Origin: Chrysochromulina parva
Taxonomy: Eukaryota > Haptophyta > Prymnesiales > Chrysochromulinaceae
Direction: 5' to 3'
NCBI GenBank assembly: GCA_002887195.1
Contig: PJAB01000217.1
Span: forward strand, 1-33,784
DNA length: 33,784 nt
Part shown: one piece after another, positions 10,772 to 33,784 of the stretch
How the letters are laid out: each line of letters starts with the position of its first letter
Position numbering within the stretch: the first letter of the stretch is position 1
Translations under genes and position numbers: made by a program
The notes under the pieces: generated by a model
Databases searched by the model: none
What the model saw: only the letters and a program-made list of their open reading frames with translations
What the model was told of the DNA's origin: nothing

Positions 10772-13114
10772 ATGGAGCTTGTCCTACCTCATCCGACACC
10801 GGAGGAAACGGCGCCCGAGCTGCCGGAGCCGGCGCCGGAGGGCACAGAGGCGGAGCCGCGCGGCATATTGAAGACAAACGTGAAGGTGACACGGACAGTG
10901 ATGGTGAGGGCCTTGATCCACCGGTTGCTGGACGTCAACCTCGTGCTTCAGCAGTTCGCAGTCAAATCACAGATTGAGGCCAGCTGGTTCGAGCCCGAGC
11001 TCAAGCCGTTGACGAGCAAGAGTACGACGACGACGATGACTTTGGCGGACGTCGAAGCGGCGCGCTCCATCGCAGTCGACAGGAGCCGCACGAACCAGTA
11101 CGTGGGCCATTTGTACTGCTACCTGCCCTCTGAGAAGGAGGAGGATCTTGAAGCCGAGAAAAGCGCTAAGCGCTTTTGGGCCCCGCGCCTCTACTTTGAC
11201 AACGTGCTCACGATGGAGAACGAGGAGTCGTGGTACCACTTTTATGATTCGGCACCCGGCGAGGCTTCGAATCCTCCGATGGTGTGCCTGCACTGGTCGT
11301 TCACGGGCACCTTCTCCGAGCCCATGGAACTCTCCTCATTCCCGCTCGACGCGCAGATCCTCACGATGCGCCTCGTGAGCGGCCATGAGGAGGTGCGTGC
11401 GGCCAACCCCTCCGTCGAGAAGCGTACCATCGTCCAACGCGGCGCCAGGGTGCGCGCGAAGCAGGTGGAGCTCGTCAAGAACGCGTCGTCGAAACGCCGA
11501 AGCAATCTGCGCACGCACACCTTCCTGCAGGCGCATGAGTACACTCTGTACCCGCGCCTCAATTTCCACGCTGGAGAGACACGTGAGGAGGATTCGTCCT
11601 CAGCCAGCGTGTACGCCGCTGATGGCCTCGGAGTGCCACGGATGGCCTCCCTGATGGCCCCTCGATGACCTCCCTGATGGCCTCCCTGCATGGCCTCCCT
11701 CATTGCCTCCCTTGATTGCCTCAGGTACCCTTGATTGCCTCCCTCATTGCCTCCCTTGATTGCCTCTCTCATCAGGTACCCCTTGATTGCCTCCCTCATT
11801 GCCTCCCTTGATTGCCTCCCTCATCAGCTACCCCTTAATTGCCTCTCTTGATTGCCTCCCTTGATTGCCTCCCTCATCAGGTACCCATTGATTGCCTCCC
11901 TCATCAGGTACCCCTTCATCGACATCCAGATGCGCGTGCGCCGCCGGCCATGGAACTGGTTCTTCAATGTCGTCTTTCCGCTCTTCATCCTGCAGGGCAG
12001 TTTGGTCACGACGTACGCCATCGACACGGGGCTTGCCGATCGCGCAGGCGTGACCATCACGCTCTTGCTCGCCATCATCGCCTTCCGGTACGTGGTGACC
12101 GAGAAGCTGCCGCAGATCTCGTACGCCACCCTGATCGACCTGTACGTGCTGAGCAGCTTCGTACTCGCCGCCCTCATCATCGGCGATCAGACGTGCTTCG
12201 GGCTCGGGCTCTACGGCGAGAAGCGCGACCTGCGAGTCGAGATCGCCTCGCCGTTTGATTGGGTTGAGGGTGCGGACGGAGGGTGGACGCAGCGGCAGGT
12301 GGAGATTGGTGGGCCTCTAGTTCACGTCTTCCTCGTGTGGGTGACGATCCACGGCGTGATCGTCCTTGCCATCCTCGCGCGCGCCGCCTACTTCTATCGG
12401 GACGAGGAGTCCTGGGGATACTCCGAGACGACCCTGTGGATTGGAGCCCTCGTCCCGGGCTCGATCTCAGACGATGGTAAGAGCGACCCGCGGCTCACTG
12501 ATGAGGCCACCTCCGCCCTGGGCGCCTTCCTCGCGCACGTGCTCGACGAGAGCCTGCCCAACCTGTCCAAGCGCTGCCGGTTGAGCACATGGACGCCCGA
12601 TGCTGCCAACGCCGTGATCCATAACCTCAGCCGTCATGCCAACGGCCAGGAGGGCGATGGCTATCGGGGCACGACGCCTTTTCTAGTCGCGACGTTTGCG
12701 TCGGCGAGCGACGCGCGAAAGGTGCTCGCCTTTGTGGCCGAGGTCCTACCAGACGACGAGCATGAGTACAAAGAGGAGGTGCTTGCTGAGGACGTGCGCC
12801 TCGCTAAGCCGTACTTCCGCTCGGGCGTCATCAAGGTGGAGCTCCTCGATGAGAAATACCTTTGCCTCACTACGAGGAAGGTCCTTTCGCGCAAGGTGCT
12901 CGAGGCCAAGGGCAGGTGGAGACCCGCTCTCATAGGGGCCGACGCCATCATGCAGCGTTCGATCACCGCGATGAGCAAGAGGGTTCGCTGGGGCGGAAAG
13001 GCGGGGGGCGAGGAGTCCGACCGTTGGACTGGCAGTCCCTTAATGACTCCGACCGGCGTACCTGCCAGCGACTCCCTCAGATGGTCCTCTGTGAAGCCGT
13101 ACATTGAAGATTGA
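10772..13114 (+). CDS. Pentameric ligand-gated ion channel-like protein with C-terminal extension
   Basis: Two exons, 10772-11610 and 11908-13114, giving 681 residues; the junction makes S-V-Y-P-F-I-D. The N-terminal part has the beta-sandwich features of Cys-loop-type receptors: FWAPRLYFDNVL (135-146), HWSFTGTF (174-181) and FPLDAQILTMRL (190-201). The last corresponds to the WRFTGTF...FPFDxQ segment of prokaryotic-type members; no Cys-loop pair is seen. Then come four membrane segments: about 297-317, 324-343, 355-375 and 417-440. Members of this family normally end at the fourth helix, but here about 240 more residues follow, with no recognised domain. Ligand and ion selectivity cannot be read from the sequence. 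The intron sits just before the pre-M1 segment and is an introner-type repeat array. Confidence 0.78.
11611..11907 (+). mobile_element. Introner-type intron: tandem 52-bp units
   Basis: This 297-bp intron starts at GTACGC and ends CTCCCTCATCAG. Inside it are units of about 52 bp that begin GTACCC(C)TT and end in CAG (ends at 11724, 11775, 11827, 11880 and 11907; spacing 51, 52, 53, 27). The unit start copies the first nine bases of the following exon (GTACCCCTT). The filler is built of TTGATTGCCTCCC and CTCATTGCCTCCC words. Each unit thus offers an acceptor-like end followed by an exon-like start. The pattern fits repeated target-site copying plus tandem growth. Confidence 0.8.
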
Positions 13115-13606
13115 GCTTTCCGGTGGCGCGCCGCAGGCAGCACATCGCGTCGTCCTGAGACGGTCTCGTTCGGGTTTGCGAGGTCTGTCCTCTGTGTCAG
13201 CATGACTGTGGGTTTAGCTTTCGGATTGTTTGTGTACGGGTTGGGCCGACATAGGCATAGTTCAGCTTTAGCGGTTCTCTATATGGCGCTACGTAGACGA
13301 AATCAAAATCATAATATTATGCCTCTCCATCCAGTACTGGGACAGTTTGTGTGTGTACTGTGTAGAGATCGGGTGAGAGAAGGAACGTCTCATTATCCCG
13401 GCTCCCCCCGGTGTTTTTGAATCGGGACAGTACCTAACCACGTCTGCTAACAGCCAAGTATACCAAGAGAGTTATTGAGACATTACATGTACTTCACTCA
13501 CCCGATCTCTATGCACTCAGTCTACAGACACTCGCTCCCTCCCTCACGCACTGGGTACAATTGTAACGGACATCGACATGCATTCGTTTTGAGCGAGGTT
13601 TGGAGA
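13115..13606. other. Intergenic region
   Basis: About 490 bases between the channel gene and the FkbM-type gene. It is less GC-rich than its surroundings. A 72-codon frame at 13202-13420 has no recognisable content and is not called. The frame of the next gene is open from 13475 but has no ATG before 13607. The 5' region of the FkbM gene must lie here. Confidence 0.4.
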
Positions 13607-15138
13607 ATGGATTACTTCCTCACGAACGCGACGGTGTGCGCGGCCTCCTCTTGCACCTCGGCGTCGCTATCGCACACTCTACCGCTGGAAGCGTGGCGGT
13701 CCTCGCATACTGCGCTGGCATCGATTGCCATGCGTGACAGGTGCCATGACTGCCCTACGATTGAGATGCACCCAGGGCTGCGCCCGTGCTCGCGCAGCCA
13801 AGAGCGGCAGGAGGTCTTTGTGCTCGCGCTGGCGACTGCGCTCGGGAAGCCGCACGACGGCTTCTTCGTCGAGCTTGGAGGGCACGATGGGCTGCGCGCG
13901 AGCAACACGGTGTTCACAGAGAGCTGCCGCAGCTGGCGCGGGCTGCTCATTGAGCCTAACCCCAGCGCATTCGAGCTGATACGGACGCACCGGCCGGGTG
14001 TGCTCGCAGCCCGTGGCGCGGTGTGTACCGTGCGCGGCAGGGCGACCTTTGCAGCGCGTCGCTCCGTCAGCTCAGCCAGGCATGGCGTTGCGCGCATGTC
14101 CGCGGACGAGACGGGTGGCCTCGAGACGCTCATGAATCAGAACTTTGAGCGCGCGGGCTACAAGGAGCGCGCCCCCACGGCGTGGCTCAACACGACGCGC
14201 GCTTTGCGCATCGACGTGCCGTGTGCACCTCTGCACGACTACCTTGCCCTCTTCAGTGTGCGCCGTGTCGACATTTTTTGGCTCGACGTGGAGGGGGCCG
14301 AGCTTGCGGTGAGATGCACCGAGATGCCCCGTCGAGACTGCCTCATCAACACACCGTGCCCACACTGTCCCCTCCCCAGTGCTAGCGTGTGGACTCGCAC
14401 CGAGCAGCTCCGCGAGCGCATGCATGCACATGTGCTGTGTTTCGTCAGGTGCTCGAAGGCTTTGATCCGACCAATCTCGGTGGGATCTCAATCGGTATTC
14501 TCGTGGTGGAGATGCGCTTCAACGACGTTCGGCGTACCTTCCGTACGCTGCGCCTTCTCAGCCGACTGGGCTTCGAGCTGGTGCGAGCGCTACCCGTATG
14601 GAATTACAAGATCCTTGACCTCGTCTTCGTACGCCCCGAGCACTTTGGGTTCTATGCCGCCGGCGACGACGGCGGCCATGGCGCCGCTGCCGTCAACATG
14701 AGCAGCAGCAGCAGCGAGAGTGCGGGCGAGGAGGGGCGGCGACGTGGACTCGGCTTCCCCAAAGCCGCTTTGGAGGCGTCAGGTTCGTCAGGTTCGTCAG
14801 GTTCATCAGGCTTCCCCAAAGCCGCCCTCGAGCTTCTAAATAGGCAGAGCCGGAACCGTCCGCCGGGCGCCAACGTGCGCTTGATGCAAGGGCGCGTGGG
14901 AGGCCGTTATGTCGTCCCGCCGCCCTCGTCGATCCTTGAGTGCGCTGTGTGGGCGGCGCCGAAGAGCGACGACCAAAGTCACGGCAACGGTACGCTTGTG
15001 GCGGCGCATGGCATGCTGCGCATGGAGCGTGTGAACGGCGCTAATCGGACCCGTGATTGGACCAGCTGGCGCGTCCGTAAGAAGTTGGACCAGCTGAGCT
15101 TCGTGCGGATGAAGAGTGAGAGCGCGAGTGTATGCTGA
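13607..15138 (+). CDS. FkbM-type methyltransferase-like protein
   Basis: Two exons, 13607-14308 and 14449-15138, 463 residues, phase-0 intron of 140 bp (GTGAGA...TTTCGTCAG). The ATG at 13607 is the first in frame. The domain starts with a Ser-Gln-Glu segment, then GFFVELGGHDGLRASNT (85-101, SAM-binding loop of the Methyltransf_21/FkbM family) and GLLIEPNPSAFELI. The exon 1 end, VDIFWLDVEGAEL (near 221-233), is the conserved strand 4 region, and exon 2 continues with VLEGFD, ISIGILVVEM and LGFELV. Splicing is needed to keep this order. Family members methylate hydroxyl groups on glycans or other small acceptors; the acceptor here is unknown. Residues beyond the domain are Ser/Gly-rich with a duplicated FPKAALE block and look unstructured. 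Confidence 0.78.
14752..14830 (+). repeat. Duplicated FPKAALE block with 9-bp tandem repeat
   Basis: A GGCTTCCCCAAAGCCGC block occurs twice, separated by a 9-bp TCAGGTTCG/TCAGGTTCA tandem repeat. All are in frame in exon 2 of the FkbM-type gene and code for FPKAALE, SGSSG units and FPKAALE again. Confidence 0.85.
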
Positions 15139-15531
15139 GAGACGAGCGAGATGTAACTCAAGACGTCAAGAGAGATGGCGCACGGCTCACGCTAATCACG
15201 CGGACGAAAATAACGAGCACGATAACCATCATCGCAGATCCGTAGCCAAGAGCCGGAAGACATGCACGTGGTCGGCTGCGCATTGCTGCCCTTGATGCGA
15301 GCCTTCGGCTTCGCCGCCGCGGGGGCGGTAGCTGTGGCTGGCATGGGTCCTGCCCGCGACCGTCGCCTGTCCTTCTCTTCCTTAGCCTGTTTGCTCGGTT
15401 TGTGTTGCGTGCTGTGTCGCGTTAACATTGGCTATGGATATATGACACATCCCAAGAAATGACAGCGCTTTCAGGGTCATCTATCAGTTCACAGTCGGCC
15501 TTGTTTTCACACCTTGCTCCGTCCGTGCGAT
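15139..15531. other. Intergenic region
   Basis: About 390 bases between the FkbM-type gene and the Stealth gene. Small frames exist on both strands (for example a Lys/Arg-rich one on the minus strand at 15192-15428), but none has a recognised domain or a supported start. The promoter of the Stealth gene should be here. Confidence 0.35.
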
Positions 15532-17459
15532 ATGTGGATGTGGACTGCCATAGGTGTGCTCGCGGTGGCGCTGCTTGTGGCGCTGTCAGCGCTCGCATGG
15601 ATTTCGTTTCGGCGCGAGATCGAAGTGCGGCACTGGAAGCAGGTAGCACGGCAGCAAGAACAGCACGCCAGCGAGATGCTCTTCAAACAGAGAGAAGTGC
15701 GCAGACAGCACGATGAACTCCAGAGCTGGATCGATGATTACTACGCGCTCGACTCTGCGCGGCTGCAGGCTGAAATGGGGCCTCGGCGTGCTGGTCGTGC
15801 AGTCAACAACAACTCCATAAGCACTGGCAGGCACTTTGACAGTTCTCCATCTGTCGTCGACTACGTGTTCATGTGGGTGGACGCGGGTAACCCTCACGTC
15901 GAGTCGACGATGGCTTCAGCTTTGCGCAACAAGCAGCTCTCTCGCAGGCCCGACATTCAGCGGGTGAGGGATGACGGCACCTTTCAATTTGCGCTGCGGT
16001 CGGTGTTGCAGACGCCCCGGTTGGAGGCGGCGATCCGCAACGTGTACATCGTGACGAGCGGCGAGCTGCCACCGTGGCTACTCCCGTGGCTGGGAGACGT
16101 GCCGAACGACGTCCGTTCTTCACTCTTCACGCGGACACCTCTGCGCGCCCCGCTGCAGCCGCTGGTCGATGAGTGCCAAGGGCGCGCTTGGCGGGCCTCG
16201 CATGGGCATGCTGTACGAGCGCGCAGCCTGTACGTCTACCCTCACAACGCCTTCTTCCCCGAGCCGCTGCGGGCGCTGCCGACGTACAACTCAAACGCTA
16301 TCCTCGCCGCATTGCATTGGATCCCCAACATCTCGCGCTGGTGAGATTGCATGAGATTGCATGAGATTGCATGAGATTGCATCGGATCTCCAACATCTGA
16401 CCGCCCCTCACCTCGGCGCACCCCTCGTCCTCCCACCACCGCAGGTTCATCTACTCTGACGATGACATCGTGGCCAGTGGGCGTGACTTCGGTCTTGAGT
16501 TTTGGTGGGAGGCGGGTGGCGCGGCGGCAGGCGGCGCGGCGGCAGGAGGCGAGGCAGCGGGCGGGGCGCAGCTAGTCTTCTCTGATGCTAGCTTGCCGGT
16601 ACGGCGCAACCAGTCGACCGACGGCAACGTCGTTGAGCGGGCCATGGTCTACATGGCTGGCGTGCTCGACGAGGTAGACGATACCCGCGAGGGCGCTTGG
16701 ATCCAACGTACCGGTGCTGGCGAGAGAGCGGCGGGTAGCGTGGTGGGCGGCGCGGCGGGTGGTGCGTTAGGAGGCTTCGAGCGGAGCAGTGCGCCACAGC
16801 AGAGTTCGAGTGAGTCTCGGCGCCTTCCCCCCCCTCGGCGCCTTCCCCCGCCTCGGCGCATCCCCCCCCCTCGAGAGTACGCGCCGGCGGTGCACATGCC
16901 CGTGCTCTTCAACGTGCGCGTACTCTGGGAGATTGAGTCGAGGTGGCCGGAGCTCATGTCGCGCACTAGGGCCCACAGGAAGCGCGAGATGGACGAGATC
17001 GAGCTCAACTTCTTCTACCAGCACTACCTCGAGCTGAGCGGCTACCCGACAGCGCGCCACGCTATCAAGCGCTTTCGTGTGGGGTACCACCCGGTGCAGC
17101 TGTGCGGCACCCCGTGGGGAGGCTCCATCTGCAACAGCACGCTCAGCAGCGACCGCTACAACTTTGTGTGCTTCAACGACGGCTTCAACCACGGAGCAGA
17201 TGGCGCACAATGTGAGTTATGCTACGAGCGCGGCGTACGCCACCTTCAGCACCTGCTGGGCCACCGCTTTGGCACCTTTGGCCCACCGGCCGGCGATCAT
17301 GGGCGAGTCTCCACCACTCTCTCAACCACTCCAATGGGGCTGCAAGCGAGCCTATTAAGAATGAATCGTGCGGTGCGCGGCGGAGCCGGAGCGAGGGAAT
17401 CCCACGCAGAAGCGGGCCCAGTAGTACGTAGCACTTTGATTAAACACGTGGACACGTAA
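15532..17459 (+). CDS. Stealth-family sugar-phosphate transferase (GNPTAB-like), type II membrane protein
   Basis: Exons 15532-16340 and 16445-17459, 607 residues. The ATG at 15532 gives a short cytosolic end and one membrane anchor (TAIGVLAVALLVALSALAW, about 5-23), then a coiled stem. Stealth regions appear in order: CR1 DYVFMWVDAGNP (110-121), CR2 DGTFQFALRSV...RNVYIVTSGELPPWL (148-183), FIYSDDD right after the intron, and CR3 HMPVLFNV...ELMSRTRAHRKREMDEIELNF. Family members transfer hexose-1-phosphates; the animal relative starts the mannose-6-phosphate tag in the Golgi. Low-complexity Gly/Ala and RRLPPP repeats interrupt the region between CR2 and CR3. The C-terminal end is uncertain: a GTGAGT at 17213 and a CTTCAG near 17250 could form another intron, changing the last residues. 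Confidence 0.78.
16341..16444 (+). repeat. Stealth gene intron with GAGATTGCAT repeats and an upstream-exon copy
   Basis: The 104-bp intron begins GTGAGATTGCAT and repeats GAGATTGCAT four times. At 16384-16398 it carries GGATCTCCAACATCT, which differs by one base from the exon sequence at 16319-16333 just before the donor. The rest is a C-rich tract to the acceptor. So here the intron copies the upstream exon, the opposite polarity to the CATCAG introns. Confidence 0.7.
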
Positions 17460-17868
17460 AGTCGTACGTCTGTCGGCGGCGACTCGCCTCGCTGGCCATA
17501 GGCCAAGCTGGCGTCGAAGCTGGCGTGGCCTGCAATGGCCCTCCGCTCTCTCCCACGGAAACAGCGCTCGAACTACAGGGTTCAGGGTTGGGCGTACCCG
17601 ACACCCATAGAAATGCGATGGGATGGATCACGTTTGACCTTACGTGAGTACGTCGCTTCCCCCCCCTCGGACCGCGCAGTCACGCAGGGCCGTTTCCTCT
17701 TCTGTGCCACCGAACACTGTCCGTCATGATGCCATGAGTGACTCCGGCTGGGTGATGCGCGATCATACGCTTTCGCTCCCAGCCACCTTCGGGCACGTCA
17801 CCTGAGACCGTCTCTCAATCGAAGGTGTCGTCAATCTCGTCAATCTCGTCGATGTCGGAGACCGTCTC
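17460..17868. other. Convergent intergenic region
   Basis: Roughly 400 bases between the ends of the Stealth and beta-mannosidase genes. The only structure seen is the 27-bp direct repeat at 17804-17884, which overlaps the beta-mannosidase stop region. A 64-codon frame at 17535-17729 is not supported by anything else. Confidence 0.4.
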
Positions 17869-17884
17869 TCAATCGAAGGTGTCG
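17804..17884 (-). repeat. Direct repeat that duplicates the beta-mannosidase C-terminus and stop
   Basis: Two identical 27-bp copies (17804-17830 and 17858-17884) lie 54 bp apart. On the minus strand the upstream copy codes for the last residues D-T-F-D and the TGA stop; the downstream copy repeats D-T-F-D and TGA in the same frame. The 27 bases between them code in frame for an acidic D-I-D-E-I-D-E-I-D stretch. Confidence 0.85.
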
Positions 17885-20800
17885 CAGAGTGAGCGTACAC
17901 GGAGCCCAACGCCAAAGTCGTCCCACGAGCCTTGCTTCTGCGCGGTGAACGTGATGGTCTTTTCGGAGCCCGCAAGCATCATGAAGGCTCCGTCGCTAAA
18001 GGCACCTGCGACGTGGAGCGACGCGAGGCTCACGAAGGCTGCTGTGCGCTCGGCACGCAGCCGCACGCTGGCGTTGAGACCTCCCACGGATGGTGGTGGC
18101 ACATCAACTGAGAGCACAACAACGCTGGCTTTGGGAAGCGTAGCGTATTTCATCGGAGTCCAAAAATGGAACGCCTCGATGGGCCCGGTCCCGTTGCCAC
18201 CGAACGAGAGACGCACGAACGTCTCGTTGCGAGTCAACTTTGGGCCCGCGCCGCCGCTCGCGGCGGCGAGCAGATCGTCGATGTTCACCGTGTACCCCTC
18301 TTGCGTGCCGAGTGCGGGGGCGACCGCGAGGTGTGTCACCCGCCACAGGACGACTGCAGGCGAGTCGGCCCATCGATAGATCTCGAGGTCGAGATCGTCA
18401 GAGAGATCTCGCGTCAGATCGCTCGTCAGATGGACGGTCAGCATGCCGGTGCCTGCCGCCTCGGTGGCGCTGACGAGGACCGGCGCAAAAGCGCGCGCCA
18501 CGCCGTGGTGCGAGAGCTTCGGAGTGCCATCGAATTCAATCGTCGACCAACTCGGCCCGGGCCAAACGTCATTGAGCTGCCAGTAGAGCACGCCCATGGT
18601 GTTCGTCGGCATCGAGCGCTGCCGCCGCCACTGCGCGAAGGCGGTCTCGTAGCAACGCCCCTGCTGCAACTGGGTCAGCCACAGGTAGTCCGAAAACACT
18701 TTGGGCTGCATCGTCGACACGTTGGCGGGGGGCACTTTGAAGTGCGAGCTCATCATCTTCTCGACCTGATGAGGGAGACAATCATATGCAATCAGTGGGC
18801 CATCAGGGCGATGAGGGGCACCTTGAAGTGCGAGCTCATCAACTTCTCGACCTGATGAGGGAGGGCAATCATATGCAATCATCTTCTCGACCTGCTCGTT
18901 GCCCAGCTGGTGGCGCTGCCGGTAGAAGAGGAGCCACGAGTCGCGTGAGTGGTCCTCGGGCGCCGTGACGGGCGCGTAGCTCTCAAAGGAGGGGAAGGAT
19001 TGAAAGCCGTGCTCCGAGATGAAGCGGGCGAGTGGGTACCTGATGAGGGAGGCAACCATATGCAATCAATGGACCAGCAGGTCAATTGGGGGCACTCAGG
19101 GAGCCGTGCTCCGAGATGAAGCGGGCGAGTGGGTACCTGATGAGGGAGGCAATCATATGCAATCAATGGACCATCAGGTCGATTGGGGGCACTCAGGGAG
19201 CCGTGCGAAGAGATGAAGCGGGCGAGTGGGTACGTGGACGGATCTTCGCAGTCCGCATTGTAGTTGTAGTAGTGCCGATCTCCCCACGAGGGCGCTTGGG
19301 GATAGTCGGGTGCGTCGCCCATCGCGTCGCCCCAGCGCTTGACCAACGGAGAGCGCCCATCGAGATCGCTCGAGATGAGCCCGTTCGAGGGCGAGCTATC
19401 TACAAACGGGCGACCCTCGGGGTCGCTCGAGAGGACCGAGGGCCGTATCGTGTCGAGATAGAGCTTCACGTAGTCTGCGACGTACAGGTCACGGTTGACG
19501 CGGCTGAGATTGAACCATTGCATCGCGTACTCGTTCTCATTCGAGCCGCCCCAGATGACAATGGACGGGTGCGCCGCCAGTCGCGCCACCTGCTGCGTCA
19601 CCTCCTTGCGCACGAGGTCGAGAAAGTGGCCGTCACGGGGATAGAGCGCACACGCAAAGATCATCTCCTGCCAGATCGACGCAGATCGAGATTTGGCCGA
19701 GGGCAGTGACAATCAGTGGCAATCAGTGGCAATCAGTGGCAATCAGAGGCAATTAACGACACTCACCTGCCAGATCATGATCCCGAGCTCGTCGGCGACA
19801 TCGTAGAACCAATCGGGCAGGTAGCGCCCGCCGCCCCACACCCGCACCATGTTCATGTTGGCGGCGGCCGCGAGGCTGAGCAGCCACCGCGCGCGCTCAC
19901 GGGTCTCTCGCGGCGCGAAGACATCCAGAGGAATCAAATTGGAGCCTTTGGCGAAGATGGGCACCCCATTCACACGAAAGTAGAATGAGGTACCGCTCGG
20001 CAGCCCCTCCGCCGGCGGCAGCGCAGGCTCCTCGACCAGCTCCACGGTACGCAGCCCAACACGCTGCCGCAGCGAGGACATGGGCGCCGTCGTGGGCACA
20101 CACGCCGACGCCTCCTCGGCGTCGCTGCCGCGCCCGTCGCCAGCAGCAGCAGCAGCAGTGGGCACGGGCGTCATCGTGGGCACGGGCGTGGCGGCAGCGC
20201 AGGGCACCAGCGAGGCACGAAGCTCGTAGAGCGGCTGTTCGCCGTAGCCGCGCGGCCACCAGAGCGTTGGTGCGTCGACGAGCAGCCTTGCAAGATAAGG
20301 CGCTGCCTCCTCCTCCTCCTCTGCCCCCTCGGCCAGCTCGACGGCGCCAGATTCAGCGACGACCGAGCGCCGCGCGTGCACGCTGGCAAAGGTCAGCGAC
20401 GTTTGGTACCGTACGGCGGCCCTGGCGGCGGCATGGGCAGCATGGGTGGCGTGGGCGGCGTGGGCGCTCGCACAATCTGGCTGGCAGAGCTCGAGCCGAA
20501 GGGCCACGTGGCTTGCATGCAACCGCGTAGCGCTCCAGCCAGGCGCGAGGTGGGCATTCACAGCGAGTACCACCGAGCCGTTCCGCTGATGCTCCTGTGC
20601 TATGGAGAGCCGACGGAGCTGCGGCCCATCCTCCGAGGCGCTCTTGCTCGGTCGAAGCGTGACGCTGCCCGTGATGCCCGTCGGCATGAAGCTGGGGCCC
20701 CAGTCCCAGCCAAAGTCGGTCGGTGACTTGCGCACAAAGTTTCGGAACGGCAGGCCGCCGACGCACGGTCCGGTTTCGCAAGTCGCATTGTAGACCCACG

Positions 20801-21335
20801 TGTCGCCCGGCTCGCTCCATGTGTGGTAATAGATGGACGCGGGCACAGGGTACGGATAAGCGCGGGCGCGGGCCATCCCGGCGGCGCGTGCGTTGGTGAA
20901 CGCGACGCTGATTGTGTTGACGCCCTGGTTGAGGACGGCCTTGGCCACAAACAGCTCCCACGTGATGAACGCGCTGTCGGTGTTCCCGGCGAAGATGCCG
21001 TTAATGCTCACCGTGGCGACCGTGTCGACGCCCACCATGGTGAGCAACGAATCGGCCTTGAGCAGCGGGTCGTCGGCGCCAAGGGTGAAGGTGCCCTCAA
21101 ACGTCCAGTTTTCGAGCGCCACCCAGCTCCAGTCGCGCTCATTGTAACGATACAGCGGATCACCCTTGAGCACTCCCGCGGCCATCAGGGCGGTGTGCGC
21201 GACGGCCGGAAGCGGTGCCGGCACATCGATCGTGCGGTTGGAGTTGCGGCAGCGCCATGAAATGATCGGGTCTGAGGCGGCGCAGCCGTATGCCGCTGCG
21301 ATGAGAAGGAGGAGGGACTTGACGTTTGTGGTCAT
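17869..21335 (-). CDS. MANBA: Beta-mannosidase, glycoside hydrolase family 2
   Basis: Four exons on the minus strand: 21335-19767, 19667-19234, 19039-18892, 18765-17869; 1015 residues. The ATG at 21335 starts a signal peptide (MTTNVKSLLLLIAAAYGCAA); an earlier in-frame ATG at 21464 lacks one. The N-terminal sugar-binding domain has the family features YNERDWSWVALENW and SINGIF. The core has NMNMVRVWGGG, WGGSNENE (second Glu is the acid/base) and, at the start of exon 3, FISEHGFQS with the nucleophile Glu. It cleaves terminal beta-mannose in the lysosome, vacuole or outside the cell. Ala/His-rich, Glu-rich and Thr/Pro-rich inserts make it longer than the animal enzyme of about 880 residues. 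Three of its introns are introner-like, and one lies just before the nucleophile codons. An in-frame duplicate of its end lies after the stop. Confidence 0.9.
18766..18891 (-). mobile_element. Introner-type intron: units of 40 and 86 bp
   Basis: This 126-bp intron consists of two units that both begin with a copy of the next exon's start (GTCGAGAAG) and both end TCCCTCATCAG. The first unit is 40 bp. The second is 86 bp, and its first 37 bases match the exon with two differences. Both contain GATTGCATATGATTG. The intron length is a multiple of three and has no in-frame stop, so retention would insert 42 residues without a frameshift. Confidence 0.85.
19040..19233 (-). mobile_element. Introner-type intron: two 97-bp tandem units
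   Basis: The intron is exactly two 97-bp units (19233-19137 and 19136-19040) that differ at only about six positions. Each starts with a copy of the following exon (the second is identical over about 35 bases; the first has three changes) and goes on through CTGAGTGCCCCC and GATTGCATATG to CCTCCCTCATCAG. The donor GTACCC is itself exon-copy sequence. The copied exon segment includes the codons around the catalytic nucleophile. Confidence 0.9.
19668..19766 (-). mobile_element. Introner-like intron of opposite polarity
   Basis: In this 99-bp intron the last ten bases (GATCTGGCAG) repeat the last ten bases of the upstream exon, so the copied sequence supplies the acceptor AG, while the inserted part supplies the GTGAGT donor. 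The body is a tandem run of TGATTGCCAC words, similar to the filler of the other introners in this window. Confidence 0.7.
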
Positions 21336-21940
21336 GATCCGGGTCGTTGCGATCGACCGCGGCACGGGTCCAGCGATAAGGCCTTCTCGCGGCCGGCATC
21401 CGCTCGCGCGCACGCGCTCGGCACCGCTTCTACGCACCACAGCTTCCGAGGGAGCAATGCCCATTCGTGTGCTCTTTCAGTAGGCAGCAGTAGGCAGCAA
21501 GTGCCAGGCGCCATGTTCATGTGAATACACACAACACGTACAAAGCTCAGAAGGTTCATTCATGGCTCTCAAGCAGCTCTGGTGTGAAACGGCTGTTAGC
21601 CGAGCTTGCGGAACGTCCGCAACCGAGAAGGCACCAACTCACAGTGGAATTGTTCGAACACCCGCCGGGACACACACGGGACACGAGACACATGGAGGAA
21701 CGGGGGAGCCGGGTGCCGGGACACACGGCACACACGGTTCAGCGCGAACCTCACAAACAACCCGACCCGCGCCACGTCCCCGGAGCCGACCGAACTCGCC
21801 ATTCTTTTGCACCACGGAACTCGACAAAAACACCATGAAACACGAAGTGCGAAAATTGTGTCCATCTGCAGGTCGCGTGCGAAAAAACGGCGCTTTAAAA
21901 TTCCTTGGGAATCGCCTTCTTCCTCGCCGCGCATCCGGTT
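21336..21940. promoter_or_regulatory. Divergent promoter region
   Basis: About 600 bases between the start codons of beta-mannosidase (minus) and the Zn2Cys6 protein (plus). It contains a short AGTAGGCAGC duplication near 21479-21498 and ACAC-rich stretches near 21660-21740. No recognisable gene or named element was found; both promoters are assumed to be here. Confidence 0.4.
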
Positions 21941-24001: not shown

Positions 24002-24433
24002 CGTCACTTCCAACGTGACTCATCCAGGCATTCTGCCGCAGGTTTCAGCGCCAGCGGTTTCTCCTGCTCGCAGTAAATCAGGAGGCAAGGAACAGGGCGC
24101 CGCCTCGAGTCGGTACGGAAGTGGGCGAGCGAGAGGTCTGTCTTTTGTTCCGTTCAATCGCATCTTAACAGTCACGCAAATAGTATGTGACAGGAGTTCT
24201 ATCTTCAACACGTGCATGCACCAAAATCACCTTTGCATGTTGGGTTTCGGCAATTGCTCTGGTGCCGCGTGCAGCACCCGCATCTCTCTGTGTCGATTCT
24301 TCCTAATGAAGGACGACGCATGGGCCTCTAGAGCCCCCATGGAGGATCACAGTGATGGAGAGGCAAAGCGTGATTTGCTCCGAGCAAACCTCGACGTACA
24401 ACAGCTCAAGGTCAGGAACTCGCGCAGAGCCAA
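24002..24433. other. Intergenic region
   Basis: About 430 bases between the Zn2Cys6 gene and the CH-domain gene. A frame at 24307-24464 (MKDDAWASRAP...) runs into the next gene out of frame and is not called; an upstream 5' exon cannot be ruled out. Confidence 0.35.
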
Positions 24434-27400: not shown

Positions 27401-28501
27401 CGCGAGATCGAATCTCCGAGGCGTCCCCCGAGCAATCTCGTGATTGCGGAGGCTCTCGCAGCGGCGACGAAGGACCTCGTACGAGTCACGTCAGAGCGCG
27501 ACAGGGCGCGGGCGGAGGCCGACGCTGCTGCCCTTGCTCTCACGACCGTGCTTCCGCCGGACACAGTGTCCGCCGATGTCCTGCGACGCCTGGCCCGCCG
27601 TCTGCATCACCACAAGGGCGCTCGCCACGGCCCCGTCGAAACCACTGAGGAGCGCAGCGCACTGAACGCATGGCAACGGCGCGTCTTGAGTTGGCAACGG
27701 TCTGTCCTCGGCTCAGAGGCCAGCAGCCCCTGCACCAGTCCCCCCTCGAGCCCCTCGAAGCTTCCCGTGATCGAAGCCGAGCCGGAAGTCGTGCTGCGCA
27801 CGGCGCCGCCACGGTCGGTCCCGCCGGTGGCGCCGATTCCGGCGGCGCCGATGCCTCAAGCCGCTGCGTCGACGTCGCAGGCGGACGGTGCTTGGAGCTT
27901 GGTCCTTGTGGATGGCCCTCCTGTGGAGTTGCGCGATCGTCTGCCTCCCCCGGCCCCGCCGGCTGCGCTGGGGCTGCTCGCGACTTTGACGAAGCTCGTC
28001 CCGCGCTTGAGCGTGGCGATGATAGTATGGTTCGTGATGATCATCCTGCTCGAGCTCCTGTATCGTGTCTACATGGCATTCGCCGACCCGACTGCTGCGG
28101 TTGGAATTGTGGACGTGGCGCCAAAGCTCCGCATGGTTGAGTCAGAGCTCTTCGCCCGGGCTCTCCAGCGAAGATTCGTAGGCTGGTGGAAGGTCCACAT
28201 GGTGCAGATGCCGGACCAGCTACAGCTCGGCGCCGCCGCCGCAGGCCAGCTGCTCGCCATCCACAAGGACCTGCTCGTCATCCAGCTTCGCGCCACGTCG
28301 GCTTCAATCGCGCACTGGGCGAAGGAGCGCTCGAAGCGTCATTTGAGGCGAGTGGAGAGTGCGTGGCGTCACGCCGTCGACGTTGCGCCCAGCCCAACGC
28401 AATGTAAGCTCCCTCACGTCATGATGCACTGGTACTCCGTTGAGGTGCTGCGCAAGAAGGGTTGTACGGCTCCGGTGTTCCAGTGGGACGTGAGTTACTA
28501 G
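24434..28501 (+). CDS. Tandem calponin-homology, EF-hand, coiled-coil membrane protein
   Basis: Two exons, 24434-25031 and 25464-28501; 1211 residues. The junction falls inside the second CH domain (FCAL-V-HDSEP), which makes the intron certain. Order: CH1 (about 38-140), CH2 (163-266, with WQKGFTDGQAFCAL), EF-hand loop with all ligands (DADGSGSMEITE, 381-392), a weaker second EF-like loop (KSRDGSLHEDEF), Pro/Ser-rich RPATSPAR repeats, a long Ala-rich coiled coil, one membrane helix (about 1048-1072) and a C-terminal domain of about 140 residues. Tandem CH domains bind actin in alpha-actinin, spectrin and nesprin families; the EF-hand suggests calcium control. The C-terminal membrane helix suggests an actin-to-membrane linker. 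The membrane is unknown, and the tail does not resemble a KASH domain. Confidence 0.78.
25032..25463 (+). repeat. Long CH-gene intron with two repeat arrays
   Basis: This 432-bp intron (GTGCGT...GCTCGCAG) holds a CTACCTGATG-type array near 25049-25090 and five copies of a 12-bp CGAGATTCATTC unit at 25211-25270. The CCTGATG words recall the introner filler on the opposite strand in other genes, but no exon copy is clear. Confidence 0.75.
26739..26812 (+). repeat. 24-bp coding tandem repeat (RPATSPAR)
   Basis: Three in-frame copies of a 24-bp unit encode R-P-A-T-S-P-A-R in the linker between the EF-hand region and the coiled coil of the CH-domain protein. Confidence 0.9.
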
Positions 28502-28882
28502 TCAGGTGTTGCGAGAGAGTTCTACGGGTGTAAGTTGAGTGCGTCATAGCTGAGATATTTCGTCACGGTCGCCACATTAGTCATTACATGTACTACATAG
28601 GAGAACCTGGGAATGACTTACCCCAGGTTCTCATACTACACTCTACAATCATCCATTGTTCAGCCGTAAGCGCGTACTCGCTACGCTGCTCCAGACCACT
28701 GGAAGGCTCTGCTCGAACCCGCCCACCGAGGCTACTCGATGCGCCACACAATGACCGTCGACAGTGCGCCACGCCAGCGCTTAGTCACACAACAGCCGGT
28801 CTTGTGCGTGCCTGTGGATGGCAAGTGGGCCTACAGCTGTACAGTAGCACAGCAACAAAGGTGCACCCGCTCATCCTACTCT
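28502..28882. other. Convergent intergenic region with hairpin
   Basis: About 380 bases between two converging genes. It contains a perfect 11-bp inverted repeat (28601-28632) and a 21-base segment (28793-28813) that copies, with one change, the end of the next minus-strand gene (28884-28904). Confidence 0.5.
28601..28632. repeat. Perfect 11-bp inverted repeat, 10-bp loop
   Basis: GAGAACCTGGG at 28601-28611 is mirrored by CCCAGGTTCTC at 28622-28632. It lies 100 bp past the stop of the CH gene and could form a hairpin in the 3' UTR. Confidence 0.7.
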
Positions 28883-29740
28883 TCAGCCGGTCTTGTACGT
28901 GCCTTCGACGATGCAACCATCGATCCAGTTTGTCTTCCTGGGGAAGGTCATATTTTGCAGAGCCTGCACGGCGGAGAAGCCCAGGATGGTGGCCTGTGAC
29001 GACGAGAAGCAGCCGCTTGCCGTTGAGGCCGTCGCCAGGATGCCAATCGACGTGCCGATGAAAGGGTTGTCTGCGAAGTCCACGACAACACCCACAAAGG
29101 TGCCTGTGGCGCCGCCGATGGCCGCCGACAGAGTGAAATCGTCACGCAGGTTTCCGAGCGTCGGGCCCTCAACGGCCGGGAAGGGGAGCAGGCTGCGTCC
29201 GCCGCGAAGCCCGACAAAGAAGGCCGAGCCGCACGCTGCGCCGACGCCACTGGCGGCCATCCAGAAGGGAGCGTCGGCGAGGGCATTGCACATCGGCTGC
29301 CAGACAAATCCAGAGAGGAAGGTGGCGCACGCGAGGAAGGTGGCCGTCTGTACCTCCTTGGCCATGCTGATGTTAGGCACGGCGAGCGATTTGAGCAAAA
29401 AGTACGCACAATGGCCTGTAAATACCGCACCAGCATCACCCAGCCCAGTTGTGACGAAGTAGCCAAGATCAGTAGCAGCAAACCCAAGAACTTGACAAGC
29501 ATATGCATTGGCAGCCCACCAGCCAGCACCCGCCGGTCCGATCTTGCTCGCGCAGACTTCAACCGTGACGATAAAACGCATGGCGAGGGACGATGCTGCG
29601 CTATCTGCGTTCTCTCTCCGTTCCTCAGCCGTGGCGATCGGTGTGCGCAGGTGGCGTGTGGCAGACCGGAGCGTGGCGAACGAAACCTTCGATACAGGCG
29701 GCCACATCGTTCCGCGCGAACACGCGCGCATCATGATCAT
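28883..29740 (-). CDS. Multi-pass membrane protein of unknown function
   Basis: 285 residues from the ATG at 29740 to the stop at 28883, apparently one exon. After a basic N-terminus of about 65 residues (possible targeting sequence) there are five or six hydrophobic segments rich in Gly, Ala, Ser and Thr: near VCASKIGPAGAGWWAANA, GLGDAGAVFTGHCAYFLL, ATFLACATFLSGFVW, WMAASGVGAACGSAFF, LSAAIGGATGTFVGVVVDF and GTSIGILATASTASGCF. No transporter signature was recognised. The small-residue helices suggest tight packing in an organelle membrane, which is inference. The 3' end carries the CAGCCGGTCTTGT segment repeated in the intergenic region downstream. Confidence 0.65.
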   Translation of the reverse strand: MIMMRACSRGTMWPPVSKVSFATLRSATRHLRTPIATAEERRENADSAASSLAMRFIVTVEVCASKIGPAGAGWWAANAYACQVLGFAATDLGYFVTTGLGDAGAVFTGHCAYFLLKSLAVPNISMAKEVQTATFLACATFLSGFVWQPMCNALADAPFWMAASGVGAACGSAFFVGLRGGRSLLPFPAVEGPTLGNLRDDFTLSAAIGGATGTFVGVVVDFADNPFIGTSIGILATASTASGCFSSSQATILGFSAVQALQNMTFPRKTNWIDGCIVEGTYKTG

Positions 29741-30124
29741 TGTTGCGGCCGAGGTGCGGGGGGTACAGAGCTCACAAGTGCATCAAAAACGCGGGGGTGC
29801 GGAATTCAGCGATTCCGATTCTAAACATACGCGGCAAGACGCTCAAGTCGCACAACCACCGGTCCCGTGGAGACACACCGCGTAAGGCGCAGACTATTCA
29901 ATTCAGCGATGCGATGAAAGAACCTACCGGTACCGTAGAAACTGTAGAGATAAAGAACCAATCGAAATGTCCATGCTACAGTGTACATGAGTGTATTTCA
30001 TCCTGACCTATCGTGTACCCGAGAAGTACGCGATACAGCATCTCATGGCGTGCGAGCGATAGAGCGCGAGCATTTGAGTCGGGTGTGATTGTCTTGTGGC
30101 GGGTGCCTGTGCACGATATATGAG
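29741..30124. other. Intergenic region
   Basis: About 380 bases between the start of the membrane protein gene and the end of the next minus-strand gene. It is less GC-rich than average with no recognisable gene. It should contain the membrane protein's promoter and the 3' end of the next transcript. Confidence 0.4.
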
Positions 30125-30751
30125 CTAGAAGTCTCCGAAGTCTATGAGCGACGGCTGCTGGGGGCCGCCTCCAACGCTCAGCACGGCATGCGGCGGCGGC
30201 AGCGGTGGACGCGGCGGCGGCGGAGGCAGCGGGTTGTTGACGGTCCTCTGTGGCAGCGGCTGCTGCGGGTTGTCGACAGTGTACCGTGGTGGCGGTGAGC
30301 CGCTGCTCTGTGAGTCGGCATCGACGCCCTCGGTGAGCTCTGAGAGCAGCTGCAGCATCAGCTGGCTCTGTCGCAGGAGCAGCTTGGCGTCGTCCGGGCG
30401 CAAAGAGCCTTCCTTGAGCAGCTCGCGCAGCTCGTGCTGAGCCGTGCCGAGCCTTACGATGAGAGCCTGGAAGTTGGGAGTGCTCAGCAGCTCAGCCTTG
30501 GGTAGGCTCTGCTTGCCGCACGCACGCAGCTCGGAAATAATTGCCTGCTGCTCCGACATGTGCGCCGCGACCTGCGGCCCCGCGACGACTAGGTCTTCAG
30601 AGCCGGCGCCGTCAGGTTCATCGCGCATGCGCCCGCCTCCCCGCACGTGCGGCGATGCATGCGATGAGAAGCTGCCATCATCCTCCTCTATCTCATCTGG
30701 CGACAGAGGGGCGTGCTTCGGTCGGCGCGGTCCCCACGAGGGGAACTTCAT
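30125..30751 (-). CDS. Small helical, proline-rich protein ending in DFGDF
   Basis: 208 residues, single exon, ATG at 30751 (MKFPSWGPRRPK). The first 60 residues are acidic/basic and unstructured. The middle is a helical bundle-like region: QQAIISELRACGK, LIVRLGTAQHELRELLKEG and DDAKLLLRQSQLMLQLLSELTE. Pro-rich repeats of TVDNP/TVNNP and PPPPP follow, and the end is SLIDFGDF. The DFGDF tail matches the D-F-G-x-hydrophobic motif bound by gamma-ear domains of AP-1/GGA adaptors. The helical part is loosely like GAT-type bundles of trafficking adaptors. A role in vesicle sorting is therefore a guess from short motifs, not a family match. Confidence 0.55.
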   Translation of the reverse strand: MKFPSWGPRRPKHAPLSPDEIEEDDGSFSSHASPHVRGGGRMRDEPDGAGSEDLVVAGPQVAAHMSEQQAIISELRACGKQSLPKAELLSTPNFQALIVRLGTAQHELRELLKEGSLRPDDAKLLLRQSQLMLQLLSELTEGVDADSQSSGSPPPRYTVDNPQQPLPQRTVNNPLPPPPPRPPLPPPHAVLSVGGGPQQPSLIDFGDF

Positions 30752-31103
30752 CGCCGACGAGAGCCACGCTCATCTTTGTCTCGGGCCCTCCACGTTTTCC
30801 CACAGGTCGAGTCGGCCGGCGCGGGAGCCCCCCACTGAGGTCCAGAGCAGCTCACAGCAGACTTGAAAGTGGAAATAGCCTGACAAAATACGATTTTGGC
30901 AGGCACGTTCCGTAGGAAATGGTGAGGACTGAGGACGGTAAGTAGTACCGTACATAAATGTCACGTCGCGTGCCAAACAGCGAGACCACCCGCTTGATTA
31001 TGTCGTGCCCTGCCATACCCTCCCCATTGTGACACTGATGGCCGCGCCGCGAGACCCACGACCGCTTGGTTGAGAGATGTCAGTGATTGTCATGAGAATC
31101 GAG
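30752..31103. other. Intergenic region
   Basis: About 350 bases between the start of the DFGDF gene and the end of the PAF acetylhydrolase gene. No convincing frame or repeat was found. Confidence 0.4.
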
Positions 31104-32898
31104 TCACGGGGTCGCGTGGACATGCCGAGCAGTGTATGCCACCTTGTCCAGCACCAGGTCCAGCCCCGCAGCCCCATCTAGGCTCGCACCTTCGGGCATC
31201 AGCAGCTTGGCACCTCGAAGGAAGCCGAGGATGCTTGCCGTTGTAGCTCGATCCATCTCGGCGCTCGTCGTGCCGAGGGAGGTCTTCAGGACAAGGTTGA
31301 GCCAATGCGGCATGGTATACGCGAGGTCACAGAGCCCTTGATGGCCAGCCCCCGCAATCGTGAGCGTGCATGCCGGGCGGGCGGCGCCGACGAGCACTCG
31401 ACGAGCCCAAATTTGGTACCAGTGGAACTCGACCCATTGCTCGGACCAAATCGTCAGCAGGGGAAGGTGCTGTGTGAGAGGCGGTGCACGGCCTCCGCAC
31501 GCCCGCAGCCCCTCGGCCTCGCTCGCATACCTGATGAGGGAGGCCATCGGTGGTCATCAGTGGCACTCAGAGGCAAGTAGCAGCCTCTCGGCCTCCGCTC
31601 GCACACCTCGTATCGTTGAAGACACCATCGTAGCCTGTGGCTGTCCACACGCGGCGCGGCATCCAATCAACTGCCGGGTCGAGTGCGAAGCACGCGCCGA
31701 TCCGGGCAGGCCGGATGCGATCGCTGCTGCGCTCGTCCCGTGCACCGGCCACATCAGCGCCGTGTTGGGCCGCGACCGCGCCAGCGCCGTGTTGGGCAGC
31801 GACGCGGTCGGCGCAGACCGTCAGAGCGGTCGCGCCTCCAAACGAGTGGCCTCCCAGGACCAGACGGTCAATGGCGAGGCGCCCCCGCAGAGTACTGAGC
31901 AGGGTCTCCACCTGCGCGTCGGCCAGCCCGTCCATTCGCACGTGCGTCCCCCGAGCCCCACCCGACAGTACCGACCCCTCCTCGATCGCCTCCAGAAACC
32001 CGAGCGTGTCCTCGACATTCGTGGCGCGGATGAGCGTCTGTGCGCGTCGTGCTTCCTTATAAGCCTCCGTGGCCGGCTCGTAGCCGAGGTCCATGACGGA
32101 CGCATCGTACAGGAGCGCTGAGGGTGCACCCGTCGAGGGATCCGCCTCGACGAAGCGCGCGAGCGAGGAGGAGCGGTCCGTGTGCTCCACAAGGAGAACC
32201 AGAGCCCCGGCGGCTGCGAGTGAGAGCGCCATCGAGCTGCTCGTCTCTCGAGTGGCCGTGAGGCCGTGGGAGAAGACGATGAGAGGCAGCTTACCATCGC
32301 CGGAAGGGGTATCGGCAGCCGATGGCAAGGCAGGGGTCGCTCCATACTTCGCGCGGATGCCGATCGCCGCCCAATGGCCGAGAATCCATCTCGGGAGATA
32401 CGGCCGGAGCTCCCTTGGCGCCGCATTCTGAATGAAGGCACGGGTGAGCTTGTGCCGATCTTGCATGGCGATGTAGCCAGCGCAGTCCTGGTGCACGCTC
32501 GTTGGGTAGAGCATGCGGCCGATGATGCGCCGCCCCTCGCCCCTCTTGTTGCAACGCACCTCGTAGTCCACAACACCAACGCACCACGGGCCAGGAACCG
32601 GCTTCAAGCTCGGCAAGCGAAAGGCGGCGTCAATAGCCACCGAGATCGCACCAAACACCGCACCACACACTCCCCATCCGGCCGCGGACAGGCACAAGCC
32701 AAGACGCGGAGCAGTCAGCTGCCAGTAGTCTGGCCGTCGCCACGTGGCTATCCGATGGGCGACCAGCACGCCCAGCGGCGCACAGATTGCCACGAATGAT
32801 GGTGGCGTGAAACCGAGCAGGACTCGCGCAGCTGTCCACAGAGGGAGGGACCAGATGAGCAAACGATCTACGTTGCGGTAATAGTGCGGCCACGACAT
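31104..32898 (-). CDS. Platelet-activating factor acetylhydrolase-type phospholipase
   Basis: Exons 32898-31607 and 31530-31104, 572 residues. The ATG at 32898 is the first in frame. Two or three hydrophobic segments (about 11-50 and 65-90) make it membrane-anchored, unlike the secreted animal form. The alpha/beta-hydrolase core has PLIVFSHGLTATRE (205-218, oxyanion region), GGHSFGGAT (nucleophile Ser352), FALDPAVDW (Asp407) and, in exon 2, GAGHQG (His494), giving a complete triad only after splicing. PAF-AH enzymes release short or oxidised acyl chains from the sn-2 position of phospholipids. A small in-frame duplication (VAAQHGA twice, about 367-381) lies just after the nucleophile elbow. 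The 76-bp intron is a single introner unit. Confidence 0.85.
31531..31606 (-). mobile_element. Introner-type intron: one 76-bp unit
   Basis: The whole intron is one unit. Its first 27 bases copy the first 26 bases of the next exon with one inserted base and two substitutions. Then come CTGAGTGCCACTGATG and the end CCTCCCTCATCAG. The donor GT belongs to the exon copy. This is the simplest member of the family in the window. Confidence 0.85.
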
Positions 32899-33446: not shown

Positions 33447-33481
33447 CCTCCACACCGGACCTGGGGGCTGGCCGGCTATAA

Positions 33482-33660: not shown

Positions 33661-33784
33661 CTTAGCGAGGTCAGTGACGAAACTTCGACGAACCTTTTCC
33701 CGCACTTACAGTGTCAGACACTCCAGTGTGACACGTCGACTCTCAATCTTCGGCTCGGGGGGTCGGGTCCGGTCGCCTAGGGTC

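What the first reader, a model, noticed from the sequence alone, without database searches (positions are those of the whole stretch)
11611..31606. A family of introner elements shared by unrelated genes
Seen: introns at 11611-11907, 18766-18891, 19040-19233 and 31531-31606 all end in the block TCCCTCATCAG, and their 5' ends copy the start of the exon that follows. They sit in genes with nothing in common (channel, mannosidase, phospholipase), always in the sense direction. Known: introners described in several algae create introns by insertion, supplying one splice site and taking the other from a target-site duplication. Inference: this genome has an active or recently active introner family whose core provides the acceptor, with the donor GT coming from the host exon. 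The exon copies are long, up to about 37 bases, far more than a usual short duplication, which hints at a distinct insertion or tandem-duplication mechanism.
Basis: partly seen in the sequence, partly recalled or inferred. Interest (0 to 1): 0.9.

Follow-up and report, generated by a model that had tools for sequence, protein, structure and literature searches.

The report
Introns carrying scraps of former genes
In this algal genome (likely a haptophyte), one short sequence recurs 1,473 times, and at the sites examined it mostly marks the end of segments predicted to be spliced out of genes as introns; a traced family line shows such introns copied from gene to gene with a fragment of the previous host gene attached, so part of an intron's travel history can be read from its DNA, and the copying is likely done by reverse transcription at a nicked target.

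Summary
The core CTCCCTCATCAG occurs 1,473 times in the window's genome (reversed control: 5). At 37 of 70 core arrays examined, the bases after the core also stand upstream of the segment (swapped controls 38 of 1,400). Removing the window's four segments restores open frames in three genes; at 20 of 20 sites with coding signal on both sides the frame continues across the excision.

The duplication varies (9-31 bases without gaps, one of about 55), unlike the 3-9 bp reported for some known families. What is copied is a donor intron, complete or 5'-truncated, with the same 3' end. In one pedigree gene D gave an intron to A, and A to B (and probably C); copies hold the tail of the donor's duplicated exon, and nested substitutions agree. 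A second, weaker chain links contigs C1167, C798 and C1.

Mechanism is unproven. I favour target-primed reverse transcription (reverse-transcriptase genes, one beside an endonuclease frame, are present); DNA template switching is the main rival. No RNA data were available; splicing is inferred.

The parts
10772..13114 (+). Host gene 1: Cys-loop-type channel, exons 10772-11610 and 11908-13114
   Evidence: Open frame after excision; stop at 13112-13114; weak Neur_chan_memb match, below cut-off
11611..11907 (+). Core-bearing intron with a degenerate tandem array; start copy weak (GTACGCC/GTACCCC)
11896..11907 (+). Terminal core CTCCCTCATCAG; further exact cores at 11816-11827 and 11869-11880
17869..21335 (-). 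Host gene 2: GH2 beta-mannosidase, exons 21335-19767, 19667-19234, 19039-18892, 18765-17869
   Evidence: 1,015-aa frame after removing three introns; Pfam; gap-free across the three splice points against 6ddt
19040..19233 (-). Core-bearing intron: two 97-base units, each duplicated exon start + element + core
19199..19233 (-). Left copy of the duplicated exon start of that intron, about 35 bases (right copy 19005-19039); first 24 bases exact
18766..18891 (-). Core-bearing intron: two units with exon copies of 14 and about 37 bases; element closely like that of the intron at 19040-19233
19668..19766 (-). Related intron without the core: own 5' splice site GTGAGT, 3' splice site inside a 10-base duplication GATCTGGCAG; holds CTGATTGCCA repeats
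   Evidence: gap-free splice point
31104..32898 (-). Host gene 3: PAF-acetylhydrolase II-like lipase, exons 32898-31607 and 31530-31104
   Evidence: 572-aa frame after excision; PF03403, 95.5 bits
31531..31606 (-). Core-bearing intron, single unit; left exon copy about 27 bases (31580-31606), right copy 31505-31530, with an indel

Best explanation
These segments are a family of introners, predicted to be spliced out as introns, in which, as one traced pedigree shows, a donor intron ending in CTCCCTCATCAG, usually cut short at its 5' end, is copied into the coding sequence of another gene beside a duplicated stretch of the new host exon, likely by target-primed reverse transcription of intron-containing RNA. 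Shown by sequence: 1,473 copies of the core; a common 3' end; variable 5' ends; exon duplications of 9-31 bases counted without gaps (one of about 55, one recipient with no more than about 4); and exon pieces of the donor gene retained in the recipient's intron in one clean pedigree (D to A to B) and one less complete chain. Inferred: the target strand is nicked just before a G-GT or G-GC; its 3' end primes synthesis on an RNA holding the donor intron; synthesis stops early or jumps with 0-4 shared bases; the second cut lies downstream, so the host exon piece is doubled. The left copy of that piece would then provide the 5' splice site, the inserted end the branch-like TGAT repeats, pyrimidine tract and CAG, and splicing would restore the host frame.
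For: Genome count 1,473 against 5 reversed; 955 of the 1,473 are followed by GT. Duplications anchored at the core end in 37 of 70 arrays against 38 of 1,400 swapped pairs; in the 33 kept, lengths 9-31, median 21, so no fixed length. Variable 5' ends: element length 26-77 in 31 of the 33, 134 and 182 in two. Frame continuous in 20 of 20 sites with coding score on both flanks (27 of 33 without that filter); open when spliced 29 of 33, unspliced 9 of 33. Sense 61, antisense 1, undecided 8 of 70; random positions 1,112, 1,145, 743 of 3,000. Pedigree: gene D (C1194:4.7 kb) holds its own exon piece twice (about 55 bases, 6 mismatches and one gap). Gene A (C1194:11.6 kb) holds 26 bases of its own exon, then the last 15 of D's piece (one mismatch to D's left copy). 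Gene B (C1486, second of two units) holds 22 of its own (20 identical), then the last 13 of A's piece, then the same 15; the match of B to A runs over 69 bases at 99% (E 2.2e-27). Gene C (C48) holds 16 of its own, three unmatched bases, the last 2 of A's piece and the 15. Within the 15 bases one substitution separates D's native exon from D's left copy, A, B and C, and a second is shared by A, B and C but not D. One search was made to test whether the 15 bases continue as D's native exon; they do. Second chain: a 25-base stretch in the C1 intron is found in the intron of C798 (twice, exact) and with one mismatch right after a core in C1167 (reversed control 0). BLAST pieces of the gene A intron (40 of 149 candidates scored): 59 of 68 end within 7 bases after the core end. 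Reverse-transcriptase genes are present (5 RVT_1 matches), one beside an Exo_endo_phos frame.
Against: The common 3' end may be selection only, since other ends would not splice in frame. Related introns without the core (19668-19766; L016:6099; L025:7946) have inserts ending elsewhere. Of the 68 BLAST starts only 5 lie inside gene A's own stretch; the other 63 lie at 42-63, mostly 47-52, and mainly mark where the common repeat begins, so they are weak evidence for truncation. Duplications up to about 55 bases exceed the 14-16 bp peak reported for human full-length L1 (PMC2912911). No tail; the two reverse-transcriptase loci followed downstream show no exact core, only matches with 2-3 mismatches, and I did not fix where these elements end; scanned alone, two of the three proteins fall just under the RVT_1 cut-off. 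Core sites cluster: 24 of 77 arrays lie within 3 kb of another against 4.05 expected (largest of 500 simulations 14), and genes D and A lie 6.9 kb apart on one contig, which suits local DNA copying. All four pedigree sites start GTGAG in the exon (one left copy GTGCG), against 4 of 70 sampled, gene C among them; this may mean DNA homology at the 3' junction, though similar introns in general show no such trend. A to C rests on two exon bases and one shared substitution. In one search the reversed control also had one match at 3 mismatches or fewer. In the C1167 chain the native exon is an inference: coding score near zero, left copy diverged, and C798's own exon shares 10 of the bases. Only 2 of 6 fillers searched had a match elsewhere.
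Confidence: 0.5

Rival explanations
1. DNA-level copying: during repair or replication a polymerase at the host exon switches to an existing intron, copies it to its 3' end and switches back upstream, duplicating 10-55 bases; selection keeps only spliceable products.
For: Local clustering, with 18 of 20 pairs within 5 kb on the same strand; inserts without the core and with other ends; shared GTGAG at the four sites of one pedigree; 0-4 bases shared at the five 5' joins read by eye, one of them with three extra bases.
Against: In the few donor-recipient pairs read, no copy runs past the donor's splice sites (but selection would hide it on the 3' side); A-B and A-C lie on different contigs.
Confidence: 0.35
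2. Cut-and-paste DNA element (MITE-like introner) with terminal repeats and a fixed target duplication.
For: Well-documented kind of introner (PMC9860276, passages read); internal CTGATG units are inverted relative to the terminal CATCAG.
Against: Duplication length not fixed; 5' end variable; copies carry the donor's own duplicated exon, which an element with fixed ends would leave behind.
Confidence: 0.07
3. Reverse splicing of an excised intron into another mRNA, then reverse transcription and recombination.
For: Sense orientation and genic location; the C798 copy begins at or within a few bases of the source intron's 5' splice site.
Against: Predicts complete introns without exon duplication; 33 of 70 sites show clean duplications and the copies in genes A, B, C and C1 are 5'-truncated.
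Confidence: 0.05
4. Tandem exon duplication around AGGT, with shared sequence arising by slippage.
For: Exon duplication at the splice sites; tandem arrays of units occur.
Against: Foreign sequence lies between the copies and is shared among unrelated genes.
Confidence: 0.02

Closest known systems
Introners (Gozashti et al. 2022, PMC9860276; passages and section 9 read), incl. Symbiodinium family 1, which carries its 3' splice site and takes the 5' one from the duplication
   Same: Many similar introns in unrelated genes; acceptor in the element, donor from a duplicated target; enrichment in genes.
   Different: There, duplications of 3-9 bp are described for some families (49 of 130 assessed families show evidence of any); here 9-55 and variable, 5' ends variable, donor exon pieces carried along.
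Chrysochromulina sp. introners (same paper, Fig. 2C legend read)
   Same: Likely the same broad algal group; that family carries its 5' splice site and takes the 3' one, like the intron at 19668-19766.
   Different: 4-bp duplication there; the core family here works the other way round.
Tailless retropseudogenes (PMC5322556, passages read)
   Same: LINE-mediated copies of RNAs without poly(A), with duplications (8-35 nt in their filter) and target complementarity to the RNA.
   Different: Selected there as 3'-truncated and nearly 5'-complete; not spliced; not introns.
Intron gain by tandem genomic duplication (PMC3443670, passages read; PMC4974935, search listing only)
   Same: Duplicated exon supplies both splice-site registers.
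   Different: No foreign insert in the model described.
Amoebophrya introners (PMC7789003, passages read)
   Same: Direct repeats at the borders, many copies.
   Different: 3-5 nt repeats, 8-20 nt inverted repeats, mostly non-canonical splice sites.

Membership tests
Introner | Many sequence-similar introns at different sites in unrelated genes | tested here: met
   three unrelated genes in the window
Introner | Removed precisely, coding frame kept | tested here: met
   By frame only: 20 of 20 sites with coding score on both flanks, 27 of 33 in all; mannosidase against 6ddt
Introner | Splicing seen in RNA | not testable with these tools
   No RNA reads available
DNA-transposon introner (MITE-like) | Target duplication of fixed length (3-9 bp in described families) | tested here: not met
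   9-31 without gaps in 33 sites, about 55 with gaps in one
DNA-transposon introner (MITE-like) | Defined 5' end / terminal inverted repeats | tested here: inconclusive
   No constant 5' terminus seen in 33 sites; inverted repeats were not searched for formally
LINE-mobilised retroposon (SINE-like) | Variable target duplications | tested here: met
LINE-mobilised retroposon (SINE-like) | Fixed 3' end, variable 5' truncation | tested here: inconclusive
   Pattern seen, but splicing selection could give the common end
LINE-mobilised retroposon (SINE-like) | 3' tail or 3' end shared with a LINE of the genome | tested here: inconclusive
   No tail seen; 2 of 5 reverse-transcriptase loci followed downstream show no exact core, but their 3' ends were not fixed and 3 were not followed
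Tandem genomic duplication | Duplicated copies adjacent, without foreign insert | tested here: not met
   Shared insert between the copies

The most novel reading that the evidence does not exclude
Spliceosomal introns here behave as retroposons in their own right: intron-containing RNA is reverse-transcribed into nicked exons, and every jump adds a stamp of the new host exon while keeping part of the older stamps, so introns carry an ordered, readable record of the genes they passed through.
Probability: 0.4. Interest if true: 0.92.

Novelty: new variant of a known kind. Interest (0 to 1): 0.75.

Why it matters
How spliceosomal introns are gained is a long-standing question, usually argued from introns whose source is unknown. 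Here, in the cases traced, donor, recipient and direction can be read from the sequence of single introns, because a copy keeps the end of its donor's duplicated exon and substitutions accumulate in order. With 1,473 core copies (some introns hold several), larger pedigrees, jump rates and junction rules could be sought genome-wide, and RNA-templated and DNA-templated models could be tested against each other.

Tried and rejected
A fixed element with a constant 5' end: not seen in 33 sites. A link between duplication length and element length: none (rho -0.16 for 31 sites). Higher similarity of introns on the same contig: none over 33 same-contig pairs, though the measure is dominated by simple repeats. 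Shared exon starts among similar introns: no general trend. A partner element sharing the core: no exact core in the stretches read of two loci. Filler searches: of six fillers, L010 and L032 matched other loci; L034, the window's 19040-19233 intron, L059 and L031 matched only themselves. The codon model was trained on long frames of the same loci, so it is not independent of them. Organism: 18S searches did not complete; the haptophyte call rests on one light-harvesting protein whose best solved relatives stand clearly apart (9jj8/9uen, 8z11, 9uh3); that these entries are haptophyte photosystems is recalled, and a second such protein was not informative. What is not in print was looked for only in the held open-access library; of the papers named only passages, one section or listings were seen, no supplement; Roy et al. 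2023 on dinoflagellate introners is known to me only from a reference list.
Full report
OBSERVATION. The 12-mer CTCCCTCATCAG occurs 774 + 699 times in the 45.07-Mb, 2,199-contig genome that holds the window, against 2 + 3 for the same letters reversed; 955 of the 1,473 are followed by GT. In the window, removing the segments gives open frames for three unrelated genes, a Cys-loop-type channel (Pfam match below cut-off), a GH2 beta-mannosidase and a PAF-acetylhydrolase-like lipase; keeping them brings early stops. The spliced mannosidase aligns without a gap across its three splice points to a solved beta-mannosidase.

DUPLICATION. I examined 70 core arrays: the window, 20 loci of 6.8-9.9 kb and 40 loci of 1-2 kb, chosen around the first listed core places, contigs C1-C110; one of 71 arrays found was dropped as too near an end or a repeat of another. 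An ungapped duplication anchored at the core end scores 9 or more in 37 of 70, against 38 of 1,400 swapped pairs. Four of the 37 are inside repeat arrays and were set aside; the 33 kept run from 9 to 31 bases, median 21. Without anchoring, 38 of 70 score 26 or more against 17 of 350 swapped pairs; 27 of the 38 begin exactly at the core end. Of the window's four introns only the two in the mannosidase are among the 33; the lipase copy has an indel and scores 8.5 without gaps, and the channel copy is weak. 20 of the 37 are exact. The right-hand exon begins GT in 49 of 70 and GC in 14; among the 37, the base before the left copy is G in 29. In two of the 37 the left copy has GT where the exon has GC, which could be later tuning of the donor site; in two others the left copy lacks the exon's GT (CT, AA). 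33 of 70 arrays show no such duplication; the C798 case suggests that some may have very short ones.

ARE THEY SPLICED? No RNA was available. With a codon model trained on 75 long frames of the same loci, upstream and downstream frames agree after excision in 27 of 33 sites, and in 20 of 20 where both flanks score as coding; a frame is open across the junction in 29 of 33 spliced and 9 of 33 unspliced. Orientation: 61 sense, 1 antisense, 8 undecided of 70; random positions in the larger loci give 1,112, 1,145 and 743 of 3,000. A stricter earlier rule gave 25 sense, 0 antisense, 45 unclear. At least one undecided case, the window lipase, is coding by other evidence. The roughly 10-base TGAT-type repeats inside many elements can put TGA into all three frames, so unspliced copies would often end translation.

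THE UNIT THAT MOVES. Between the duplicated exon and the TGAT repeats some introns hold unique sequence. In the C1 intron (L010) this 25-base filler is found exactly in the intron of another gene (C798, twice) and with one mismatch in C1167, where it stands right after a core, in the position of the downstream exon (reversed control 0). C798's own downstream exon shares only 10 of those bases, so there it is foreign. The C1 copy lacks the first five bases of that source intron and shares TG at the join. The coding score of the C1167 stretch is near zero, so calling it native is an inference.

A cleaner pedigree came from the filler of L032 (four places, two of them L032's own contig, and one match of the reversed control). 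Gene D (C1194:4.7 kb) has an intron starting with a copy of about 55 bases of its own downstream exon (6 mismatches, one gap); the spliced frame is open over the 48 codons read. Gene A (C1194:11.6 kb) has 26 bases of its own exon, then the last 15 bases of D's piece, then the element. Gene B (C1486, second unit) has 22 bases of its own exon, then the last 13 of A's piece, then the same 15, then the element; its first unit lacks most of the 15. Gene C (C48) has 16 of its own, three unmatched bases, the last 2 of A's piece and the same 15. When only part of gene D was in hand, I fetched the rest to see whether the 15 bases continue as its native exon; they do, with a C where the copies have T (this expectation was not written in the notebook). 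Within the 15 bases that T is shared by D's left copy, A, B and C; another T is shared by A, B and C only. Scraps and substitutions give the same order: D to A, A to B; A to C is weaker (two bases and the substitution). The copies in A, B and C lost about 39, 13 and 24 bases of their donor's 5' end; all end at the same 3' base.

BLAST of gene A's intron against the genome (40 of 149 candidates scored): of 68 non-self pieces with E below 0.001, 59 end within 7 bases after the core end, 3 end before it and 6 run further; starts fall on 15 positions, but 63 of 68 lie at 42-63, where the common repeat begins. For the C798 intron, which has two units (40 of 220 candidates scored), 55 of 71 pieces end at one of its two core ends. 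In the window, the mannosidase introns at 19040-19233 and 18766-18891 share a long element segment, as a donor and a 5'-truncated copy within one gene would.

MECHANISM. A fixed duplication length, a mark of the described DNA-transposon introners, was tested and not met; no constant 5' end was seen. Reverse splicing would give whole introns without duplication. The pattern (common 3' end, 5' truncation, variable duplication, 0-4 shared or a few extra bases at the five 5' joins read by eye) resembles target-primed reverse transcription, where the second cut lies downstream of the first and truncated products are common (PMC2912911, passages). The genome has reverse-transcriptase genes (5 RVT_1 matches), one beside an endonuclease frame; that they are LINEs is inferred from these domains. 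Against it: splicing selection could fix the 3' end; related introns without the core have other insert ends; core sites cluster, 24 of 77 arrays within 3 kb of another against 4.05 expected with partly interpolated contig lengths; the stretches downstream of two reverse-transcriptase loci hold no exact core; the four pedigree sites share GTGAG at the exon start although only 4 of 70 sampled sites do, gene C among them. DNA template switching therefore stays a strong rival.

ORGANISM. 58 matches to the light-harvesting family PF00504 point to a photosynthetic alga. One such protein is closest, by a wide margin, to three sets of solved entries that I recall as haptophyte photosystem chains. Haptophyte is likely, not proven; 18S searches did not complete.

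NOVELTY. It is an introner family by function. Variable, long duplications and serial carry-over of donor exon pieces were not described in the passages I read of PMC9860276, PMC7789003 and PMC3443670, nor suggested by the titles and abstract starts from ten searches of the held library. PMC11782384 (passages) reports direct repeats of 4-30 bp near introns of many kinds, so repeats near splice sites as such are not new.

Noticed in passing
window 19668-19766 (-): Intron without the core, with the same TGATTGCC-type repeats, that carries its own GTGAGT and takes its 3' splice site from a 10-base duplication; L016:6099 (28 bases) and L025:7946 (21 bases) look alike.
   Followed up: partly
L015:1445-1478 and L013:6999-7026: Further inserts without the core flanked by direct repeats of 34 and 28 bases, so long duplication around inserts may be general in this genome.
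   Followed up: partly
L070-L078 (C1434, C324, C103): Reverse-transcriptase elements with long open frames, likely LINEs; one has an Exo_endo_phos frame upstream of the reverse transcriptase.
   Followed up: partly
window 15514-17459 (+): Gene with Stealth_CR2 (below cut-off) and Stealth_CR3 matches, split by an intron-like stretch around 16342-16443 holding a GAGATTGCAT-type tandem repeat.
   Followed up: partly
window 33476-33661: Two copies of a roughly 76-base stretch, 109-110 bases apart, near the contig end.
   Followed up: no
window 337-347 (-): A lone exact TCCCTCATCAG near the window start; no exon copy was noticed by eye; it may be a relic or chance.
   Followed up: no
L014 and L023 core introns: Left exon copy has GT where the native exon has GC, as if the donor site improved after insertion.
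   Followed up: partly
window 718-1830 (-), 13475-14701 (+): DOT1-like methyltransferase match and FkbM-type methyltransferase match.
   Followed up: no
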